A stretch of 64,000 bases of DNA from Dryococelus australis (lineage: Eukaryota > Arthropoda > Insecta > Phasmatodea > Phasmatidae), in contig CM057000.1 in assembly GCA_029891345.1 (NCBI GenBank), positions 122,745,838 through 122,809,837 on the forward strand. The letters are read 5' to 3'. Shown piece by piece: positions 15,826 to 38,529 of this stretch; position 1 is the stretch's first letter; each line of letters begins with the position of its first letter. The translations under genes and the position numbers were made by a program. The notes under the pieces were generated by a model. That model searched no databases. It was not told where the DNA came from and worked only from the letters and a program-made list of their open reading frames with translations.

Positions 15826-16075
15826 TATACGCTCTTCATGGTAAAGTTAGAATTATTGAAAGCCCTCTTATTTGGTGTTATAGTTAATAAATACTTTTTA
15901 TTATAGCCTTAGACGTTAAATTCCAAGTGTGGTGGAATACACACACTGCGTTTATTACTTACGTGGCAAGATTTATTTAAAAAGGGTGGTTGTAGGATAA
16001 ACTTTGTCTGAGCGGAAGAAGTAACTGGGGCCTCGAAAGTGCTCACTTTACCATGAACAGCCTACAAAAAGTATT
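15826..16075 (+). mobile_element. MITE family A copy
   Basis: A 250-bp element. TATACGCTCTTCATGGTAAAG at the left is inverse of CTTTACCATGAACAGCCTAC at the right. It starts about 55 bp after the exon donor at 15770. Its left interior is the inverse complement of the right interior of the 21177 copy, so the two are in opposite orientation. Confidence 0.75.
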
Positions 16076-21080: not shown

Positions 21081-21176
21081 TGAGACGCTCTTCATGTCCC
21101 GCCCTTACCACGGATCTCCAACACAACCCATTATGTTCGGTTATATCGGGGAAATCAATCTCCAGCATGTTTGCCG

Positions 21177-21417
21177 TATAGGCTGTTCACGGGAAAGTGA
21201 ACGCTTTTGAGGCCCTAGTTACTTTTCCCATTCGGCCATTTTTTTAATACTTTATTCACCGTTTAAATAAATATTGCCATGTAAGTTATAAACACATTGT
21301 GTTTATTACACCACACTTGGAAGTTAACATCTAAGCCGAAAATCAAATATATTTATTGGCCATTATTCCAAATGAGAGGGCTTTCAAAAGTGCTCACTTT
21401 ACCATGAATAGCACATA
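21177..21417 (-). mobile_element. MITE family A copy
   Basis: TATAGGCTGTTCACGGGAAAG at the left is inverse of CTTTACCATGAATAGCACATA at the right. The interior (CCCATTCGGCCATTTTTTT, CACACTTGGAAGTTAACATC) matches the copy at 30978-31227 in the same orientation. Confidence 0.8.
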
Positions 21418-21430
21418 CAAAGGATTATTA

Positions 21431-21737
21431 TACTCAGTTTGGAAGCTCAATGCTCTTAGTTTGGGAACTAAAAATTTTCGCCACTAGATAAGCACTAGTG
21501 TCGCATTCTGTACAGTTTTTTCTTTTATTTCCTACGTTAAAAAAAATAATTGCAATAATCATAAATCAAATATATAATACCTACTTAACTAAGAGAAATC
21601 TTTCTCTTTAATTATTCACGTAGCTTAAAATTAATTAAAAGTGACCTATTTGGAACACTAGCTCTTACGTAGCGGCGAAAATGTTACGTATGCCAAAATC
21701 TTCGATAAGAAAAGTCGTTTTGTCCCTAGCCTAAGTA
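21431..21737. mobile_element. MITE family C, copy 2
   Basis: Same family and orientation as 795-1087. It opens TACTCAGTTTGGAAGCTCAA and closes CCCTAGCCTAAGTA, with the shared interior TTTTCGCCACTAGATAAGC and CGATAAGAAAAGTCG. It lies about 13 bp from the MITE A copy and about 45 bp from the virus-like element. Confidence 0.75.
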
Positions 21738-21779
21738 TAACTAACCTTACTCATAAGGAAGTGCGCGTGCTTTAATTGA

Positions 21780-22905
21780 AAGGGTTAAATTAAATTGAAA
21801 GGGTCAATCAAAAAGAGTTAATTTTACACCGGATTATTTTTTTTTATTTTCTTAATTTTTAATTTTTTTCTTGATTTTCTTCTTTCTTTCTTTTTGGGAG
21901 ATCTGTCCAATGTTGACGGTGTGGTGTCTTTGAAGCGACTGACCATTGTCGCCGATTTATCATCACTGAGGCTAAGCCTCTCAGTGCGGGGGAAGTACAG
22001 ACCGAGACCCCTGTCTTCCCAAGTGTTACTCATTTGATTGGACCAGGGTTAGGGGCAGTTAACCCACCCCGCCCTGGTCCCCCATAATATAGGCACTTTA
22101 ACCTGGCACGCGCGGCGCTCACATGTCAGGAGTGTGGTTTTTGTGACCCAGTATAGCCCCTGGGCAACGGTTGTTCAATCTTTATTCCCCTTATTTTCGC
22201 CAACAAAAGTAAGGGGAAAGGCGGTGGAGTTCCGTCCCCTACTACTGGCACGGAATTTGGAAAATCCAAAAATGTAGGTCTTTTAAAAGTTTGGTAAAAA
22301 TCTATAAAAAAAAAAGTTGGTTAGTTGAATTTTATAAAATAGACTGACCAGAGTGGTGCGTTGTAATCTCTCATATAGGTGTAGAGTTGAGTGTAAGAGT
22401 GGGCTAAGGCTATTTCTTTCTAATTTTTCTTATTTTGAGGTGTTTGGAGGGATATTGGTGGTAGATAGGCGATTTTACGAATATATTTAACACACGAGAG
22501 AATTTCAGAGTGTTTAAACGATTTCTACGAGTGACCTATGTGTAAATGTTATGTTTTTTTTGGGTGGATATAGCTCGTAGATAGGCGACTTTGAAAGATA
22601 CGAATTACGTGTTAAACAACCTGTTTTCGGAATACAATTAAACGTTAGAGAATTCCAGAGTGTTGTATGTATGAATAAATTACACCCATTGAATCGGAAA
22701 TTTCAAACACTATGTGAATAATAAGTGCAATTATGTGGGTCCCGAGCTTAGAAAAATAATTTACACGAGAGAGAATTTTAACTACGTGAATAACATCTTG
22801 TGTCGACAAGTGCTAAACGATGACAATTACGTGATTGTGGAATTAACGATCTACAACAAAACATCCCTATAAATTAAGCGAACAAGATATATATATAAAA
22901 TATAT
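21780..22905 (+). repeat. Left terminal inverted repeat of the capsid-bearing element
   Basis: It pairs in inverted orientation with 29485-30285. Shared segments include CAATGTTGACGGTGTGGT, ATATAGGTGTAGAGTT, AGCTCGTAGATAGGCGACTT, GTGTCGACAAGTGCTAAACG and ACGATCTACAACAAAAC. The repeat is about 0.72 kb once a 405-bp nested insertion at 21937-22341 is set aside. Mismatches are scattered throughout, so insertion is not recent. Confidence 0.9.
21937..22350. mobile_element. Insertion with 9-bp target duplication inside the left repeat
   Basis: About 396 bp (21946-22341) interrupts the left terminal repeat and is absent from the right one. It is flanked by direct repeats GACTGACCA at 21937-21945 and 22342-22350, which mark a target-site duplication. 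The insert begins GC-rich (CTCAGTGCGGGGGAAG) and ends with A-rich tracts (AAAAAAAAAAG near 22311). That suggests a SINE or a 5'-truncated retroelement 3' end. I recognise no coding sequence or tRNA head. Confidence 0.8.
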
Positions 22906-25280
22906 ATATACGATGCCTCTGATGCATATCTTACACGCCCGTCTGCCTGTGAGACTGGCGAGGAGGAATTTTAGAAATGTAATAGAAATGTAAAAAGAAA
23001 TTTCGTGATTCTCCTAAATGAATTAATTAACTAAGCAGAAATGTTCCTATAAATTACTTTAATTAAACGACAGTCGTTCTAAACACATTAACAGTTTTAC
23101 TCGATTCAGCCTGTGAATATGATTTAAACCAGACACAATCACGTACCTGAAATATTAACATAAGTCCGTTCGAAGTATGAATGAGTAGCACTTACGCCGA
23201 TAGGCAACTGTGTTTAAATTACGGTAATATTTATGAAATTCACTGCACTTGTTAAAACAAGCGGTATTTTCGTCTACCCAACACAGAAATTGAAAATCTT
23301 GTCGTAAACGCAGTATATCGATCCGAAAAAGATAAGTTAACACACGAAAATGTATTTTTTCCCCATAAAATATTGCGTAAATCGCAGCTATCACTAGAGA
23401 TGAAGGTAGGTGCGATGCTCGCCGGTGTGGTAACCCCCTATCGTAAGCTCGTCGGCTGCCAAGTGTGTAGAGGTGCTGTGTTTATGAACGTCTGTCTCCT
23501 CCAAGCGTACATGAGCGACTGAAGATGGCGCCGAGTGTCCAAAGAACTTCACGTCGGGAGGACTGTCTGTTTGCAACCATCCCCTCCCATCCCTTCATTG
23601 GAGTGCGTCCCCGGGCTGCCCGTGATCGTCAAATGTTTACTGCACTAAGGCAAGATGGCCTCGACTGATTAGTTGAGTGCACATCGGGAGGACCCTGCCT
23701 GCCACCCCGTCACACCCCAACCACCCACCCCTACCCTGCACCCCGCAGAACCGGCCCGAGTCCAGAGGTATGTGACCCTGTCTAGCCACCTCCTACCACC
23801 CCTCCTCGGCGAGGTCCTGGAGAAAGTCACCTTTCTGTCCTCGATTCTCAAATGGTCGCAACTGATTCAAGATGGCGTCATCTACCCACTTGCACTTTGA
23901 TCGGGAGCAGGGTGCTCATAGGCACCCCCCACACCCTACCCTCCACCTCTCTAGAGTTTGTCCGAATTCACAATGACAACCACCCCCTTCTCACCAAGCA
24001 GTGTCCAGGGGAACGTGTCCCTTATCCACACACCCGTACCCCCTCCTTCACTGTCAGGTCTGAAAACGTCTTTTGTCCGACAACAAATTCAGGGAGTCTC
24101 CAACGGCTAGACACCCCTCAAGATACCAAATTAGACTCTTCCAAAACTTTTATTTGTTTGGAAAATGGCGCTTTACCCATGAAAAGTGTACTCTCCCGGA
24201 AATCTGCCCTGCTCCCTTCTGTGACTTATTCCCCCGACAGTCCCTTCCCCCGACTCGCCATACCTGGAGCTGGCCAACAACATTCAAACCTTTGTGCCCA
24301 GCAGATGTTGAAAATTCTTGCATTTACACTCTCAAATGTTTGAAAGTTTATTTCCATCGAATCAATTTTAACAACTCTCACTATTTAATTATTGCACATA
24401 ATTGCGAGAAAATATACAAATACTACCTAATCACGATCCTGGCAAATGAATAATTCATATAAATTTTTCACAAAATGAAAAAATCTAGGAAAGATTCGTG
24501 TTCCTACAACTTCGTGGAAGGAAAAAAAAACATGAAATCAGTACTAAGTTACTTACCACAAACGCAGTTTATCGATCCGAAATCATTTTAACAAAAACTT
24601 CGTCGAAAACATATCGCATAAAACATATCAATTAACTAGGTAATTTTTGTTCTGTTATGATGAAATACCGTTTTTAAGATATATATGTAGAAAAAGGTCA
24701 CAGCCACGAATAAGTGAATGTTCTCCACACAAACAAGGCTACTACTACCTCTTGTGGATAAAGTAATAAAATATATTTTTGCGAAAACATTGACTCACTC
24801 ATTTCTCTAAAATATATTTATAAAATTCCTGGTCTACAGTTTGGAGATAAATCAAACACACATTCACTTTGATATACATTTTTTAATATATCCCATTTTT
24901 CCAATAAACACAATATTTATTTACATATAAAAAAATAACATTCTTCTTAAAATATGTATTTATTTACAGAAAAACACTCAATCTTATTTTATGGGAATGA
25001 GGTTGGTAACATTTGGTTGATGCTGCAGGAAGACGAACTCGTTGCTCTCAAATCTGTGAAAAGTTGTTATTCACAGGGAATTCTAGATGAGGATTTGGTT
25101 TTTAGAATTTCAGATTAGTTATTTTAAGACACTATCTGTCAGTTGATTGCTTCACTCTTGATACGGCTGATAGTTTAATTGACTCGTAGATGCTACTATG
25201 TCATTTAAATACCCCATTGGCGGTATCATAGGGCTGAATTGATCATGGTATTGAGTGTAGTGTTGCGGGAAAAAAATGTA
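22905..25280. other. Interior of capsid-bearing element without recognised genes
   Basis: AT-rich flanks surround a GC-richer block (about 23390-24340) with repeated AAGATGGC words and proline-rich chance frames. The block is bracketed by a near-direct repeat, AAACGCAGTATATCGATCCG (23306) and AAACGCAGTTTATCGATCCG (24560), as if another sequence had been inserted or duplicated there. No polymerase or integrase motif is visible. Confidence 0.5.
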
Positions 25281-25290
25281 GACAGGAATT

Positions 25291-25596
25291 CTATAATATC
25301 ACACAAGGATACACCAGCCGACTGAATGAAGCGCTGAAATGTGGATGTAGATGTGGATGTGGATGTGGACCAGATTGTGTTTGTGGATGTGGAGAACCAC
25401 TGCTGCAGCTTTTATAGTGTCTCTTTAAAACATCCCTCCGAGAAAATTGTTCCTGGCAGAATTCACATTCAAAACTCACAGTCGAACTGTTCATCTTGCA
25501 GGTCGTTCTTTCGTGACGTCGTAAGTTCCACATACCTGTAAATTTTTTACTGCAGAAGTGACAAAGCAAAGACATAATTTCTTCTATACTATTCAA
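25291..25596 (-). CDS. Two-finger C2H2 protein inside the capsid-bearing element
   Basis: A 101-codon frame on the minus strand. It has two C2H2 zinc fingers, CHFCSKKFTGMWNLRRH (the closing Cys a few residues on) and CEFCQEQFSRRDVLKRH then C. A His/Pro-rich tail (PHPHPHLHPHF) follows, reflecting a GTGGAT repeat in the DNA. Nucleic-acid binding is likely from the fold. Its place within the element, on the same strand as the capsid genes, suggests element cargo. A host sequence cannot be excluded. Confidence 0.6.
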   Translation of the reverse strand: MNSIEEIMSLLCHFCSKKFTGMWNLRRHERTTCKMNSSTVSFECEFCQEQFSRRDVLKRHYKSCSSGSPHPQTQSGPHPHPHLHPHFSASFSRLVYPCVIL

Positions 25597-26040
25597 AGAT
25601 TAGAATGAAACTGCAAAGTGTACATCTTTTATAGGTAGTTAAAGGGAAGTCCAGGAAGCAATATTATGTTATTCATTTTAAACACAATACATCTGAATTG
25701 TAGAGGTGTTAAACATACATTTTTTAAACATAAGACATTTGAATCCTAAAAAGTACGTTTAAATAGTTTTATGTATTAAATCATTTTCTAATTACTAAAG
25801 GTTTATTTAATCATTATCCAGCACACAAACCTTTATGTGCAAACACATTTAGATTTGAATGTTTAATGCACGCAAACAAAGTTTATGTAACATTTGATTG
25901 TCAGAATATGGGAATATTACAATTCATGCATTCACAAAGTCAGCAAAACAGAAATAAATAATTTCAAACCATTTATTTCGGTATATTTACTTACAGAATT
26001 GATTTTCTCATCACTGTGTGTTTACAAAAACATTTTTACA

Positions 26041-26376
26041 TCATATCATTTCCATTCTCTCCTTGGCAATATTTATAGAATTTTCATCTGTTTGATTGTT
26101 ATAATCTTTCGTGAATTTGGGTACGTGTAATATTATACATTCTGATAAATCAGGAAAAGTTTCATAAAATTGCGAATACACTTTTTCTGTGCTCGCTGGT
26201 CGACTTGTATTCGGACACATATGGTATACAGGAAATTTTTTCAGATCTGGACAAAACATTAAATCATTGCATTTTTCACCCTCTAAGGGACATGACATAT
26301 TTCTGAAATGAAACAGCCCATCGCATATCTCTCCAAAATGACATATTATTCCATTAGACAAGCAAGAGTAATTCAC
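26041..26376 (-). CDS. Cys-rich protein of unknown function in the capsid-bearing element
   Basis: A 111-codon minus-strand frame with many Cys residues in its first half (CLSNGIICHFGEICDG, then CPLEGEKCNDLMFCPDL). This suggests a disulfide-rich extracellular-type domain, loosely like chitin-binding modules. I do not recognise a family. It lies in the same orientation as the capsid-like genes. It is treated as part of the fossil element, and its own limits are uncertain. Confidence 0.45.
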   Translation of the reverse strand: MNYSCLSNGIICHFGEICDGLFHFRNMSCPLEGEKCNDLMFCPDLKKFPVYHMCPNTSRPASTEKVYSQFYETFPDLSECIILHVPKFTKDYNNQTDENSINIAKERMEMI

Positions 26377-27234
26377 ACTTGAGTTTCCAGGGTTACAGAC
26401 ACGTAAATACCGGCTGGGTGGAAGAAAGACATGTTTACAGTAGGAATGTCACAAAGATACTAAAACTATTTCTTTCCAAAACAAACTCTAAATGGTTTAC
26501 TCCAGCGTGCTAATAACTTGATAATATTCACTTTACATTTTGATTTCTGTATACACGAGCATGTGATTTCGTTGTCTTGTTGATTCATCTTCATGAACTA
26601 ATGGATTACATACAAGCAAAAACTTTTTATAGTAAATTGCACTCATTCTAAATAATAGCACATGACTCAACTAATATCCACAGGTGATTCGGGAGGAGAA
26701 TCATCCGAGTCTTGTTTCACCCCAGTCAGTCCTCATTGCCCAACATTAATTTTGAGTTTTCCTCTGCAGAGAAAAATTGAATTAGATCCATATGTTTGAC
26801 ATAGTTGTTTGAACGAAGGGCAATTATATTGTTTTTGAATATCTATTACTTTCCCGTTATATACACTTTCGAAAACAGGTTTTTGCTCAACTCCACCTAC
26901 ATATATTTCACAATTATTTAGGTAATGTTTGCAAATATCTTCAATATTCTCATACTCTATACACGCACTCTACCATTTTAAACCATGGCGATGGTTAGTA
27001 ACCTATCTATTTGTTTTCTTGTATTTAGGAGTTACATATTTCCAGTCAAATGGTGATTTGAAGCTGAATAAAGTTGTTTGTTCTTCCATATTTGTGATAA
27101 CTAATTCTTTAATAATATTTTTTTTTTCTGCTGACTGAAATCCATGTATGTTGTAAAACATCTCGTCACAGCCATGGTTCGTCGCATACGGAATCAATTC
27201 ATTATTTTCACCAGCTTATCTCTTACATTGTAAC

Positions 27235-28395
27235 TCGCTAATCTGTCGTGAATTATAAGAACATAAGTTTGCATATTTGCTGGAAATGGTGTATTTGCAA
27301 TCATTTAAATTCGTGAATCAATCACATCATTGGTAATTCTGTCGTTTTGCTTGCTGACATCAAACACAAATAACGTTCCTCTGGTTTTAAATTATTCGGG
27401 TTCTAGGATCGGTGAACTAATTTTGTTATGATATGTTTCCTGAAAGTTTGAGTACATATCATACGAAATAAGGAATTCTCCATTGGAATAGTTCATATTT
27501 AAATCCACATAGAGGTAAGCTCGATTGTTTAGATACAGTTTAATATTTTTCATATCACAATTATCGAATACTGATCAATCTGCCTTTAAATTGCTTTGTC
27601 GGTATGTTTGTAAACAAATGATAACATATCTCGGTTTTTCCGACGAAAAACTTGAGTTCACATACCAAATGACTTTTTGCGATGTTGGGAGTGATGGGAA
27701 AACCCCTCAACCCCACAGTCTGAATAAAATGTCTATATTCTTCCCTTTTTCGACAAAATTTAAAAACTTTACACATTCAAGAGTGTTAATTTCAATATGC
27801 GGCATCAACCATTCCACACTGCTTAATTTAAATGTTACACCTTCCTCGTTATTAGCCAAATCGTATATAGCATTTGAATCTGTATTGCCGAATAGAATAA
27901 CTAATGCTTGTTTAGCATTTAATATGACATGTTTGTAGTCTTCAGCAAATCCTAAAACCATACTTTACGGTATAACAACTATGTATTTTCCACCGGGGTT
28001 TATTTGTAGTGTGTAATCACTAGCATTGTTCCACCCAGCCATAAGCCCTGTATGAATATCGTTTACAGTTCCTGGTAGATAGTTATCTCCTGTTTGATCG
28101 ATTTCCACTCCATTTAGCAGATACGCAATTCTGTCAGTTAAATGAAGTATTCCATTTCTTATTATTTTTTTAGTTGCTGGATTACTTGCAGCAGCTGTCT
28201 TTTTAATTCTTCCTGTAAACCTTGAACTTGATTTCGACGGTAACGTGTAAATATCGTGATATTGTACTGAAATCCTTATTTCCGAAGGAAACACGTGTGA
28301 ACCTGCTCGGAATGGTTCATACACGTGTATTTCCGTATTGGTGATTGCATTTTCATAGCTGATAGGTTCTTTAACATTAAGTATGTCTTCCATTT
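27235..28395 (-). pseudogene. Major capsid-like gene relic (fossil)
   Basis: The minus-strand frames carry the sequence signature I associate with the double-jelly-roll major capsid of Polinton/adintovirus-type elements. These are GFAEDYKHVILNAKQALVI near the middle, SSVEWLMPHIEI after it, and an N-terminal region with LLNGVEIDQTGDNYLPGTV. The size, about 1.16 kb, suits this class. The gene is broken. The assignment rests on remembered family resemblance and not on a search. Confidence 0.65.
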
Positions 28396-28415
28396 CTATT
28401 AACAGTATATCCTAA

Positions 28416-28616
28416 TTAGTTTAAATGCAATTCGCTGCTTTGTGTTAACTTCACGGGTGTCTTATTTGAAGTGAGAGTTTTATGTTTGCGTTTACATCTT
28501 TTTATACCTTCTTTCTTCGAAATGTGTTCCTTAGTGACATACTTCTTAAAATAATTGCCTACTTTACGTCCGAATTTACTATTGTACACAATACTCATTA
28601 TGATTGTAATGCTCAA
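28416..28616 (-). CDS. Small basic core-like protein of the capsid-bearing element (fossil)
   Basis: A 66-codon frame between the minor and major capsid-like genes. It has a hydrophobic start (MSITIIMSIVY), then GRKVGNYFKKYV and a strongly basic KRCKRKHK. Small basic virion proteins (adenovirus pX/mu-like) sit next to capsid genes in related viruses, so a DNA-condensing core role is a reasonable inference. It is too short to prove. Confidence 0.45.
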   Translation of the reverse strand: MSITIIMSIVYNSKFGRKVGNYFKKYVTKEHISKKEGIKRCKRKHKTLTSNKTPVKLTQSSELHLN

Positions 28617-29182
28617 CAGAATGCAACCATTGATAAACCTTTTTTTAAATGTAAACGAACAGTAATTTCTTCATTTCTAAAACTAATAAGTTTACCGTCT
28701 TGATCGCCAATTGTAACAACTATTTCATCAACACGATTCACTATTACTGAAAGATATATCAATGTATTAGGTTTTTCAATTGTTTTATATCCTGGAGCTA
28801 GAGCACACGTGAATTCATATAATGTATTTGTCGATTTTCCATTAAAATATGAACCACCTACAATATTAACATTTATACGACATACATTTACTGCCAATAT
28901 ATTAACCTGTTTTGATGATTCGTGTAATTGATTTGCTGGATATACTCTCCGTTCATAACCGAACATATTTGCAATTGAATTGTCTTCCGAGAAATCGATA
29001 TCGACGTTACTATACATTGCACTAGTTAACGTATTTGGATTTCCATGTAATCGAAAATGTACATCTTCAGGTAATGCCAAGTTAATGAATGTTTCAAGGT
29101 CATCCAACTCATAAGATTCTACTGGTATCACAATATTGTATATTTTTTCACCAATATTACCAGTAAATAATTGGTTATGCAT
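28613..29182 (-). CDS. Minor capsid (penton-like) protein of the capsid-bearing element (fossil)
   Basis: The longest frame in the element: 189 codons on the minus strand. It contains VNVCRINVNIVGGSYFNG, CALAPGYKTIEKPNTLIYL and VTIGDQDGKLISFRNEEITV. These resemble the minor capsid/penton-like proteins that accompany double-jelly-roll capsids in Polinton-like elements, where a GDQDG-type turn and a final beta-rich stretch are common. It lies just upstream, in transcription order, of the basic protein and the major capsid-like gene. It is the best preserved part of the fossil. Confidence 0.65.
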   Translation of the reverse strand: MHNQLFTGNIGEKIYNIVIPVESYELDDLETFINLALPEDVHFRLHGNPNTLTSAMYSNVDIDFSEDNSIANMFGYERRVYPANQLHESSKQVNILAVNVCRINVNIVGGSYFNGKSTNTLYEFTCALAPGYKTIEKPNTLIYLSVIVNRVDEIVVTIGDQDGKLISFRNEEITVRLHLKKGLSMVAFC

Positions 29183-29484
29183 ATCAATGTTTGGTATGCT
29201 GTTGTAAGTAACGAATTATGTTAGACTTAGTTACCATTCTCCATCTAACTCCAACACTGGGTAATATACCTCACGCAATTGTGACGAATTACCACTTAAT
29301 ATCAACATAATTGACATATTACTAATATGTTTTACTATTACAATTACTTATATAGCCTATTTATAGCCAAAAAATGTAAACATAAATATCCTCAATTGAT
29401 TGTATTTGGTAAGTGATCCATTTTGTATTTATATCTTAATTGTGTGTTTTTATAATATTTATATATATATATATATATTTATTA

Positions 29485-30285
29485 TATATTATTATATATA
29501 TATATCTTGTTCACTCAATTTATAGGGAAGTTTTGTTGTAGATCGTTAGTTCCACACTCACCTACTTGTCATCGTTTAGCACTTGTCGACACCAGATTTT
29601 ATTCACGTAGTTAAAATTCTCTCTCATGTAAATTATTTTTCTAATCTCAGGACTCACGTAATTGCACTTATTATTGACATAGTCGTTTGAAATTTCCGAT
29701 TTAATGTGTGTGATTTATTCATACGTACAACTTTCTGAAATTCTCTAAAGTTTAATTGCATTCCGAAAACAGATTGTTTAACACGTAAATCGCATCTTTC
29801 AAAGTCGCCTATCTACGAGCTATAACCACCCAAAAAATATAACATTTACATGTAGGCCACACTTAGAAATCGTTTAAACACTCTGAAATTCTCAAGGGTG
29901 TTAAATATATTCGTAAAATCACCGGTTTTCCACCAACATCCCTCCAAACACCTCAAAATTAGAAAAACTTGAAAAAATTAGCCCTAACCCACTCTTGCAC
30001 TAAACTCTACACCTATATAAGACATTGCAACCCAGCACTCTGGTCAATCGCCTCCAGGATACCACACCGTCAACATTGGGCAGAGCTCCTAATACTCCTG
30101 CCCTCCACCCAAACGAAAGTAAGGTAATAAATCAATAAAGTTTTTTTTTTAAAGTAACTGATTAAAAACTAACCCTTTTTGATCAGCTATTTCAATTAAA
30201 TTTAACCCTCTCGATTCAATTTAACCGTTTCAATTTTTGATCGTATTAAAATCGGATTAAGGGTTAACCCTTTCAATCAAATCGA
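29485..30285 (-). repeat. Right terminal inverted repeat of the capsid-bearing element
   Basis: Inverse partner of 21780-22905. Its inner edge is a long (TA)-rich tract next to TCTTGTTCACTCAATTTATAGG. Its outer edge has several TTAACCCT/AGGGTTAA-type words (about 30160-30285), more than the left end keeps. It lacks the 405-bp insertion found in the left repeat. Confidence 0.9.
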
Positions 30286-30441
30286 TAATCCATCGATTAA
30301 TCCCACATGGCCTAGAAACCCCACCCCCCAGTCCTACTAATAAAAAAACACGATCTTTAATTGCCAAAAGTTCCAAACATTACTCTTGTTATACATCAAG
30401 ACTTGGAACTATTTTCCGTAAAACAACTTGCTGGCGCCTGC

Positions 30442-30857
30442 TTATAAACCATTCAAGATTAATTTTTTTTTCTGAAGCCCTGTTTAAGTTCTGCTTCCAG
30501 GATATTCCTCCGCCATGTGCAAACTAAAGTTAAATAAGTGTAAAAAATTACACAAAGGGCATGTCACTGAATTCGTGCACTCAGCTGTAATACTATTTTG
30601 TATGAGAACTATTTCTTACCAGGTGCTACCAACACACGTGTTTTCCCACTGTTTTATACACATTTATAATAAAATAAATATCATAATTTAAAAAAAAATC
30701 CTGAAACTTCAACTTAACGTAAAATAAGATACTTTTATGTTAATAGATGTATAAAAGTCTGTGATAGACGGCATATTTTGAAAATAACTTAACACGTCTT
30801 ACATGGCATGATTTTTCAAAGGTTTGATTCAAAAGTGTGAAGAAATTGCGAATATAC
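30442..30857 (-). mobile_element. MITE family D, inverted copy
   Basis: TATAAACCATTCAAGATTAA at the left and GTGAAGAAATTGCGAATATA at the right are the D ends in reverse order. The interior is the inverse complement of 3702-4135, for example GGATATTCCTCCGCCATGTG and CAACACACGTGTTTTCCC. Confidence 0.7.
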
Positions 30858-30879
30858 TATATTAGCTCGTTATTACATA

Positions 30880-30956
30880 TGCAGTTAACGGTCAGTGATT
30901 ATTTACAAAGGTTGACATCAATAGTGCTAACTTTACCGTGGATAGTCTACATCATG
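30880..30956 (-). mobile_element. MITE family B end fragment
   Basis: AAAGGTTGACATCAATAGTG followed by CTAACTTTACCGTGGATAGTC matches the terminal 50 bp or so of the 48772 and 61600 B copies. The rest of the element is missing. Confidence 0.5.
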
Positions 30957-30977
30957 GTTGGGGATGCGGTAGTTGAC

Positions 30978-31227
30978 GTATAGTGCTGTTCACGTTAAAG
31001 TGAGCACTTTTGAGGCCCTGGTTACTTTTTCCTTTCGGCCATTTTTTTTTAAAATCCTTCAACAACCTTTTTCAAATAAAATTGGCCATTTCAGTAATAA
31101 ACATAGTGTGTATATTCCACCGCACTCGGAAGTGAACGTCTAAGGCTAAAAATAAACTATATTTATCGGGAATTATTCAAATTGAGAGGGCTTTGAAATG
31201 TGCTCACTGTTACGTGAATAGCCTATA
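30978..31227 (-). mobile_element. MITE family A copy abutting an exon
   Basis: It opens TATAGTGCTGTTCACGTTAAAG and ends CACTGTTACGTGAATAGCCTATA. The interior matches 21177-21417 in the same orientation. Its right end is only 26 bp before the first base of the exon at 31254, so the region where the intron branch point should lie is largely MITE-derived. Confidence 0.8.
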
Positions 31228-37084: not shown

Positions 37085-38515
37085 CCAGCGACGGACTGCG
37101 AATGGTTTCGCACCTGTGGCTGTCGCGACCAAGGACGGAATGCGAATGGTTTCGCACGCTCCTGTGGATGTCAAGATCAAAGGACGGACTGCGAATGGTT
37201 TTGCACCCTCCTGTGGATGTCACGACCAAGGACGGACTGCGAATGGTTTCGCACATGTGGCTGTCGCGACCAAGGACGGATTGCGAATAGTTTCGCACCC
37301 TCCTGTAGATGTCAAGATCAAAGGTCGAAATACGAATGGTTTTGCACCTCCCCTCCTTTTGGATGTCACGACCAAGGACGGATTGCGAATGGTTTCGCAC
37401 TCTCATATGGATGTCAAGATAAAGGACGGACTGTGAAAGGCTTTTGCACCCTCTTGTGGATGTCACGACCAAGGACAGAATGCAAATGGTTTTGCACCCA
37501 CCCCCCCCCCGGCTCTGTGGATGTCACGACCATGGACGGACTGCGAATGGTTTTGCACCCCCCCCCCTCCAACTGTGGATGTCGCGAACAAGGACGGACT
37601 GCGAATGGTTTCGCACCCTCCTATTTATGTCAATATCAAAGGACGGACTGCGAACGGTGTCGCACCGCCCCCTGTGGTTGTCACGACCAAGGACAGACAG
37701 CGAATGGTTTCGCACCCCCCCCCCCCCCCTTGTGGATGTGACGACCAAGGACAGACTGCGAATGGTTTTGAACACTCCTGTTGATGTCAAGATCAAAGGA
37801 CGGACTGCGAATAGGTTTTGCAACCCCCTGCGGATGTCACGACCAAGGACAGACTGCGAATGGTTTCGCACCCCTCCTGTGGATGTCACGACCAACGACG
37901 AACAGCGAATGGTTTTGCACCCCCCTGTGGTTGTCACGACCATGAACGGACAGCGAATGCTTACGCACCCCCCACCCCCTTTCCGTGGATGTCCCCCCCC
38001 CCCGGCTCCTCGTGGATATCACGACCAAGGACGTACTCCGAATGGTCTTTCACCCCCTTGTGGATGTCACGACCAATGAAAGACTGCAAATGGTTTCGGA
38101 CCCCCCCCCCCCCTTTTCACGTGCGGATGTCACGATTAAGGACGGACTGCGAATGGCTTCGCACCCCCTCTCCCCGCGGACGTCACGATAAAGGACGGAT
38201 TGCGAATGGATTCGCAACCCCCCCCCCCCCGGATATCCGGCCAAGGACAGACTGCGAATGGCTTCGCACCCCCCCCCCCCCTGGAGGAAGTCACGACCAA
38301 GGACTGACTGTGAATGGTTACGCATCCCCCTGTGGATACCTCGACCAAGGGCGGACTGCGAATGGTTTCACAACCCCCCCCCCCCCCCCCCCGTGAATTT
38401 CATGAACAAGGATGGACTTTCGAATGGTTTTGCGCCCCACCCCCCTGTGGATGCCACGACCAAGGACGGACCGCGAATGGTTTCGCACTCTCCTGTTGAT
38501 GTCAAGATCAAAGGA
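37085..38515 (+). repeat. C-rich minisatellite, about 27 units of 48-65 bp
   Basis: A tandem array with the core GGATGTCACGACCAAGGACG, then GACTGCGAATGGTTTCGCAC, then a C-rich spacer. In early units the spacer is a short CCTCCTGT (48-bp unit). Rightward it grows into C-runs of 8-18 bases (for example 37703-37719 and 38376-38392). Unit lengths are often multiples of three and the core lacks stops, so long open frames appear in several frames on both strands (CGCHDQGRTANGFAPP on the plus strand). These are repeat artefacts. Some units have GTCAAGATCAAAGGACGG instead of GTCACGACCAAGGACGG. Confidence 0.95.
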
Positions 38516-38529
38516 CGCAACACTACACT

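What the first reader, a model, noticed from the sequence alone, without database searches (positions are those of the whole stretch)
21780..30285. Capsid gene cassette between long inverted repeats, without polymerase or integrase
The sequence shows about 0.75-kb terminal inverted repeats around minus-strand minor capsid-like, basic core-like and major capsid-like relics plus C2H2 and Cys-rich frames. Polintons are usually 15-20 kb with polymerase B and integrase. Here only 8.5 kb is left and neither is visible. It may be a deletion derivative, or a smaller capsid-bearing element class mobilised in trans. Old and broken.
Basis: partly seen in the sequence, partly recalled or inferred. Interest (0 to 1): 0.75.

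Follow-up and report, generated by a model that had tools for sequence, protein, structure and literature searches.

The report
Decayed, internally deleted Polinton copy
This is the old, broken remnant of a virus-like mobile element (a Polinton) that lost genes by deletion; longer relatives with the same ends lie elsewhere in the same genome, so it is mostly ordinary.

Summary
In detail: inverted repeats (22345-22910 / 29483-30046, 89%) enclose minus-strand capsid relics (major capsid, PF21738 4.8e-17; penton-like and basic frames by homology), then Cys-rich and C2H2 frames; no polymerase B or integrase was found. The same repeats flank longer copies in this 3.4-Gb genome. A 14.7-kb sister (L041/L042, 6-bp target duplication) has an integrase match (below Pfam's cut-off), phospholipase-like, protease-like, penton-like and major capsid genes. 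An 18-kb sister (L039/L040) has polymerase B pieces. The window's right repeat is cut at a (TA)n tract and joined to the last ~30 codons of the protease gene: a deletion scar. None of 39 other scored places crosses it. A near relative (L034) has a different junction, likewise crossed by none of 39. So this looks like a one-off deletion relic of a Polinton, not an amplified small class. Open: no single copy was shown with both polymerase and capsid/integrase; ranked copy lists gave 0 cross-links where about 14 were expected, though lineage sampling could explain that. In passing: a LINE-like insertion recurs at the same site of the repeat in other copies.

The parts
21771..30338 (.). whole relic, left tip missing
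   Evidence: repeat alignment and tips
21771..23942 (+). left terminal inverted repeat, interrupted by a LINE-like piece; reaches beyond the part that pairs with the window's right arm
   Evidence: sisters' repeats are 1.3-1.6 kb
21946..22341 (-). 5'-truncated LINE-like insertion with GACTGACCA on both sides (clade and strand judged by eye)
24807..24928 (.). weak 63% match to L040 6408-6532, inside the repeat on the polymerase side of that sister
25291..25599 (-). C2H2 zinc-finger frame, no stop in 102 codons
26041..26448 (-). Cys-rich frame, no stop in 135 codons; 36% alike to a Cys-rich frame of L039
26781..28399 (-). double jelly-roll major capsid relic: 27197-28399 in one frame with 5 stops in 401 codons, weak tail match 26781-27161 in another frame
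28419..28595 (-). small basic, core-like frame
   Evidence: 66% over 62 aa to L041:7204-7389; no profile match
28640..29320 (-). penton-like (minor capsid) relic, 2 stops in 227 codons
   Evidence: 46% over 228 columns to L045:407-1141, upstream of a major capsid gene
29347..29442 (-). last ~30 codons of an adenain-type protease gene, 1 stop
   Evidence: 53% over 32 columns to L057 protease residues 120-149
29451..29505 (.). (TA)n tract at the deletion junction
   Evidence: homology to L041 ends at 29472
29483..30338 (-). right terminal inverted repeat, inner part missing, outer tip present

Best explanation
An old Polinton (Maverick) insertion that suffered at least one private internal deletion and then decayed. 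Shown in relatives, in pieces: inverted repeat, integrase on the opposite strand, a further stretch with short frames, phospholipase-like gene, protease, penton-like, basic, major capsid. In the window the middle of one inverted repeat is joined, at a (TA)n tract, to the 3' end of the protease gene (shown). The deletion removed the inner part of that repeat and everything up to most of the protease (inferred from L041 and L075; a two-step loss through an L034-like form is equally possible). Polymerase B was lost from the other side, or never sat in this lineage (inferred, open). An intact Polinton is copied by a protein-primed polymerase, packaged by its capsid proteins and inserted by its integrase (family knowledge, recalled). 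This copy can do none of that.
For: Same repeats flank copies of 14.7 kb, 18 kb and 5.9 kb. L041: rve 5.3e-07 (30.3 bits, below the 32.6 cut-off), Phospholip_A2_4 8.8e-07, PF21738 2.1e-20, protease motif, 83% DNA match to window 26464-29472, TSD TATACG for L041/L042. L040: DNA_pol_B_2 3.2e-04 (20.2 bits, below the 25.8 cut-off) and a YFDTDS motif. Protease 3' end at the junction. Junction crossed by 0 of 39 other scored places. Stops in the major capsid and penton-like frames.
Against: No single copy was shown to hold polymerase B, integrase and capsid. Only 40 places were scored of 5,794 candidates for the junction, so a rare shared junction could be missed. The closest major capsid relative (L034 copy) also lacks integrase at that end, though by another junction. 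0 cross-links between polymerase/Cys-array and capsid/integrase lists. The window's own target duplication cannot be tested, as its left tip is gone. Of three repeat pairs read only one shows a 6-bp duplication.
Confidence: 0.8

Rival explanations
1. The window belongs to an amplified, small capsid class without integrase and polymerase that moves with enzymes supplied by other copies.
For: Two neighbours by sequence, the window and the L034 copy, both lack integrase at the capsid-side end.
Against: Their junctions differ, and each is private among scored places: 0 of 39 and 0 of 39.
Confidence: 0.07
2. The family is split: integrase-plus-capsid elements without polymerase and polymerase elements without capsid share the same long inverted repeats and complement each other; the window is a decayed capsid partner.
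For: L041/L042 has integrase and capsid but no polymerase match; L039/L040 has polymerase but no integrase or clear capsid match. Links within 25 kb: 10 of 8,737 place pairs within capsid/integrase lists, 2 of 1,521 polymerase-Cys array, 0 of 12,090 across, 14-16 expected. In the C4 copy only about 6.1 kb lie between the penton stretch and window-like left-end sequence, against 4.8 kb in the window.
Against: Lists rank copies by likeness to different query copies, so two sub-lineages would give the same zero. Pfam misses much of this polymerase. L042/L040 and window/L040 share weak anchors beside the repeat, which suggests one ancestral arrangement.
Confidence: 0.1
3. The host has kept a capsid or zinc-finger gene here for its own use.
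For: The Cys-rich and C2H2 frames have no stop over 135 and 102 codons.
Against: Major capsid and penton-like frames carry stops; the frames sit inside a dispersed repeat element. Transcription was not tested.
Confidence: 0.01

Closest known systems
Polinton / Maverick elements (polintoviruses; adintoviruses of animals)
   Same: Long inverted repeats, AG-starting tips, double jelly-roll major capsid, protease remnant; sisters add integrase match, polymerase B pieces and a 6-bp target duplication
   Different: 8.6 kb instead of the 15-25 kb stated in a passage of PMC6431247; polymerase and integrase missing; frames broken
Non-autonomous Maverick/Polinton copies
   Same: A passage of PMC6327564 says autonomous and non-autonomous versions occur; the window is a copy that cannot move by itself
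   Different: No sign here that this deleted form was itself multiplied
Polinton-like viruses and chimeric meldviruses without PolB and integrase
   Same: Capsid genes without pPolB and RVE integrase: passages of PMC11071308 and PMC11071296
   Different: Here the lack of integrase is a deletion from relatives that have it; no other replication protein was found

Membership tests
Polinton/Maverick | long terminal inverted repeats | tested here: met
   500 of 562 positions identical
Polinton/Maverick | double jelly-roll major capsid protein | tested here: met
   PF21738 4.8e-17 and 8.9e-13, over cut-off
Polinton/Maverick | adenain-type cysteine protease | tested here: inconclusive
   only the last ~30 codons are left; a relative's protease is weakly like adenain, 4 of 6 PDB hits at E 0.09-0.92 being viral proteases
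Polinton/Maverick | RVE-type integrase | tested here: not met
   none found in the window; sisters L041 and L043 have rve matches below the curated cut-off
Polinton/Maverick | protein-primed DNA polymerase B | tested here: not met
   none found in the window; sister L040 has it in pieces
Polinton/Maverick | packaging ATPase | tested here: inconclusive
   no Pfam match among the frames scanned; no dedicated search was made
Polinton/Maverick | 6-bp target site duplication | not testable with these tools
   the window's left tip is missing; L041/L042 has TATACG, L043 has none, L039/L040 tips are altered
Amplified non-autonomous capsid class | internal junction shared by many copies | tested here: not met
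   0 of 39 other scored places for the window junction; 0 of 39 for the L034 junction; both lists are capped

The most novel reading that the evidence does not exclude
A split Polinton in an animal genome: integrase-plus-capsid elements that lack polymerase, and polymerase elements that lack capsid, keep the same long inverted repeats and complement each other in trans; the window would be a decayed copy of the capsid partner.
Probability: 0.1. Interest if true: 0.8.

Novelty: new member of a known kind. Interest (0 to 1): 0.25.

Why it matters
As a relic it matters little: one more broken copy in a genome with many Polinton sequences. Two by-products could matter. The lack of polymerase-capsid linkage, if it survives a full census, would point to a divided virus-like element. 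And a LINE-like element recurs at one site of the Polinton repeat, which may be a target preference.

Tried and rejected
Fusion idea: one search seemed to put the integrase block and the phospholipase/protease block at separate places, as if L041 fused two small elements. L075 spoke against it: the C11 copy has integrase-side sequence (matching L043 4259-4623 and L041 5033-5237; the rve core itself was not fetched) 1.37 kb upstream of the second block.

Shared-deletion class: two junction queries, not supported.

Relatives in viral contigs: four scans (penton-like frame, a major capsid piece, alignments A1 and A2) confirmed no relative. PHROGs: nothing convincing for the capsid frames. Penton-like frame, single-sequence model: mean pLDDT 29.8, not used. 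PDB by sequence: no match for L045 penton-like or L050 major capsid frames. Capsid beside a polymerase copy: 601 bases at C1:77647600 held no convincing capsid match; uninformative, as the distance was guessed. A stretch first labelled protease stub (29219-29482; notebook entry) is partly the penton N-terminus; only 29347-29442 matches protease. Flank repeats gave no continuous empty site. A host guess (Periplaneta) was used only as a paper search term, with no paper found; the host was not tested. The query with window 24600-26464 did not complete.
Full report
Setting. The host was not identified.

Observation. The inverted repeats are real: the arms agree at 500 of 562 positions, with an outer block 21894-21945 / 30041-30092. 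The Jukes-Cantor distance between the arms is 0.119, so the insertion is old if the arms began equal. Window 22342-23892 matches one end of L043, and 22342-23319 plus 23430-23537 the other. So the window's left repeat reaches about 23.9 kb while its right repeat stops at 29483. The right tip at 30338 carries AGTAG; 20 of 28 repeat copies end in AGTAGTAG 216-318 bp beyond the core. About 147 bp of the left tip is missing, judged by L003.

Genes. PF21738 (double jelly-roll) matches 27707-27964 and 27392-27574 on the minus strand. A major capsid frame of another copy, L050, aligns over 409 columns to 28399-27197 at 44%; that window frame has 5 stops in 401 codons. The penton-like frame aligns over 228 columns to L045, upstream of a major capsid gene, with 2 stops in 227 codons. 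The basic frame has one relative, L041:7204-7389, 66% over 62 aa. The Cys-rich frame is 36% alike over 86 aa to a frame of L039. The finger frame matches zf-C2H2. The labels penton and core rest on gene order and homologues only; Pfam, PHROGs and PDB gave no support.

Sisters. For the right repeat 40 places were scored of 5,907 candidates, and 38 of 41 rows lie outside the window element. Three facing pairs were fetched. L041/L042 (14.7 kb) has an rve match (5.3e-07, 30.3 bits, below the cut-off of 32.6), Phospholip_A2_4 (8.8e-07) and PF21738 (2.1e-20), a protease frame with the GTHW motif, and an 83% DNA match to window 26464-29472. Its ends are flanked by TATACG on both sides. L039/L040 (18 kb) has a DNA_pol_B_2 piece (3.2e-04, 20.2 bits, below the cut-off of 25.8), a YFDTDS motif and several Cys-rich frames; capsid frames of 30 other loci gave only 3 weak matches in L039, two of them in Cys-rich frames, and none in L040. 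L043 (5.9 kb) has an rve match below cut-off (9.7e-05) and no match to the window's capsid part. L043 shows no 6-bp duplication, and the tips of L039/L040 are altered (by eye for L039/L040).

The scar. Window homology to L041 ends at 29472, inside the protease stretch of L041. Residues 120-149 of the L057 protease match window 29442-29347 at 53% over 32 columns. Next comes a (TA)n tract, 29451-29505, then the middle of the inverted repeat. In a query across this junction only the window's own copy spans it; the 39 other scored places, of 5,794 candidates, stop at or before query position 272, that is window 29472.

A relative. The closest major capsid DNA, C1:376472968-376474699 (87%), lies 2.5 kb from the repeat L034. 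In L034 the repeat runs straight into the phospholipase-like stretch (L034 2106 = L041 5605), then protease and penton. That junction too is crossed by 0 of 39 other scored places, of 7,109 candidates; they begin at query position 255 or later, the junction lying near 257. So two neighbours lost the integrase end by different junctions. The window may have lost it in one step or through an L034-like form. C11 (L075) keeps integrase-side sequence 1.37 kb upstream of the phospholipase/protease block (rve core not fetched). At C7 an integrase-block place and a phospholipase place lie 2.7 kb apart, 12-15 kb from a repeat place of the window's left type.

Polymerase question. No polymerase B match was found in the window or in L041/L042. 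Pfam is a weak tool here: the L040 piece that carries YFDTDS had no polymerase hit. I compared ranked place lists within 25 kb. Dropped before counting: the window's own places, the query copies' own rows (L041, L040, L039, and L034's phospholipase row), second rows of one place, and the pair of two phospholipase lists. Links: 10 of 8,737 place pairs within the capsid/integrase lists; 2 of 1,521 between polymerase and Cys array; 0 of 12,090 across, where about 14 (capsid rate) or 16 (polymerase-Cys rate) would be expected. The profile-based lists of PF03175 (47 places) and PF21738 (126 places) also gave 0 links. The C4 copy has about 6.1 kb between its penton stretch and window-like left-end sequence, against 4.8 kb in the window, which leaves little room for a polymerase there. 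All this fits a divided family. It fits as well with two sub-lineages, because each list ranks copies by likeness to its own query copy. Anchors beside the repeat (L040 7197-7330 with L042 2377-2504, 82%; L040 6408-6532 with window 24807-24928, 63%) lean towards one ancestral arrangement; L042 2492-3633 also matches L039 3093-1902 at 76%, and the relative orientation of L039/L040 is not settled. I give the divided reading 0.1.

What it works like, and membership. It works like nothing now. By descent it is a Polinton; the copy itself fails on integrase and polymerase B, so I file it as a deletion relic of a Polinton, not as a working member. [quoted passage not shown] PMC6431247 gives 15-25 kb; PMC11071308 says PLVs mostly lack pPolB and RVE integrase; PMC11071296 mentions genomes with adenovirus-class virion proteins and no recognizable PolB and integrase. 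Searches for a segmented or helper-dependent Polinton and for LINE targeting of Polintons listed no paper with that point in title or shown abstract start (listings only, capped at 8; 3 and 43 papers held the terms).

In passing. The 396-bp piece 21946-22341 is a truncated LINE-like insertion (clade by eye). The same sequence sits at the same repeat site in L002-L006, with different truncation points in the window, L002 and L004 and longer forms in L003, L005 and L006; L004 has a 14-bp duplication. L007 and L008 hold it elsewhere. Of 125 exact copies of a 27-base stretch of its end (reversed-pattern control 0), 8, the window's included, have TGACCA 0-12 bases before it (control 0); my estimate for chance is about 0.4. 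Independent insertions at one site are the simplest reading; inheritance of one insertion by transposition is not fully excluded.

Genome load. PF21738 gave 126 scored places, all over the cut-off, from 18,147 first-look candidates. The L040 polymerase stretch gave 40 scored places of 4,474 candidates, the others 78-86% identical. First-look candidates are not copy counts.

Noticed in passing
window 21946-22341; L002-L006: A LINE-like insertion sits at the same site of the Polinton inverted repeat in several copies with different truncation points; 8 of 125 exact copies of its end have TGACCA just before it.
   Followed up: partly
L039:3700-7411; window 26041-26448; L045:2984-3640: Cys-rich frames, several in a row in L039 and one downstream of the major capsid gene in the window and in L045; no Pfam match for those scanned.
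   Followed up: partly
G000, place lists: Polymerase and Cys-array places never lie within 25 kb of capsid or integrase places: 0 of 12,090 place pairs.
   Followed up: partly
window 21171-21748 and 30467-31222: Both flanks of the relic are dispersed repeats with further copies in the window, for example 788-1098 and 15831-16064.
   Followed up: no
window 37090-38517: A GC-rich tandem array of about 49-bp units with higher-order periods.
   Followed up: no
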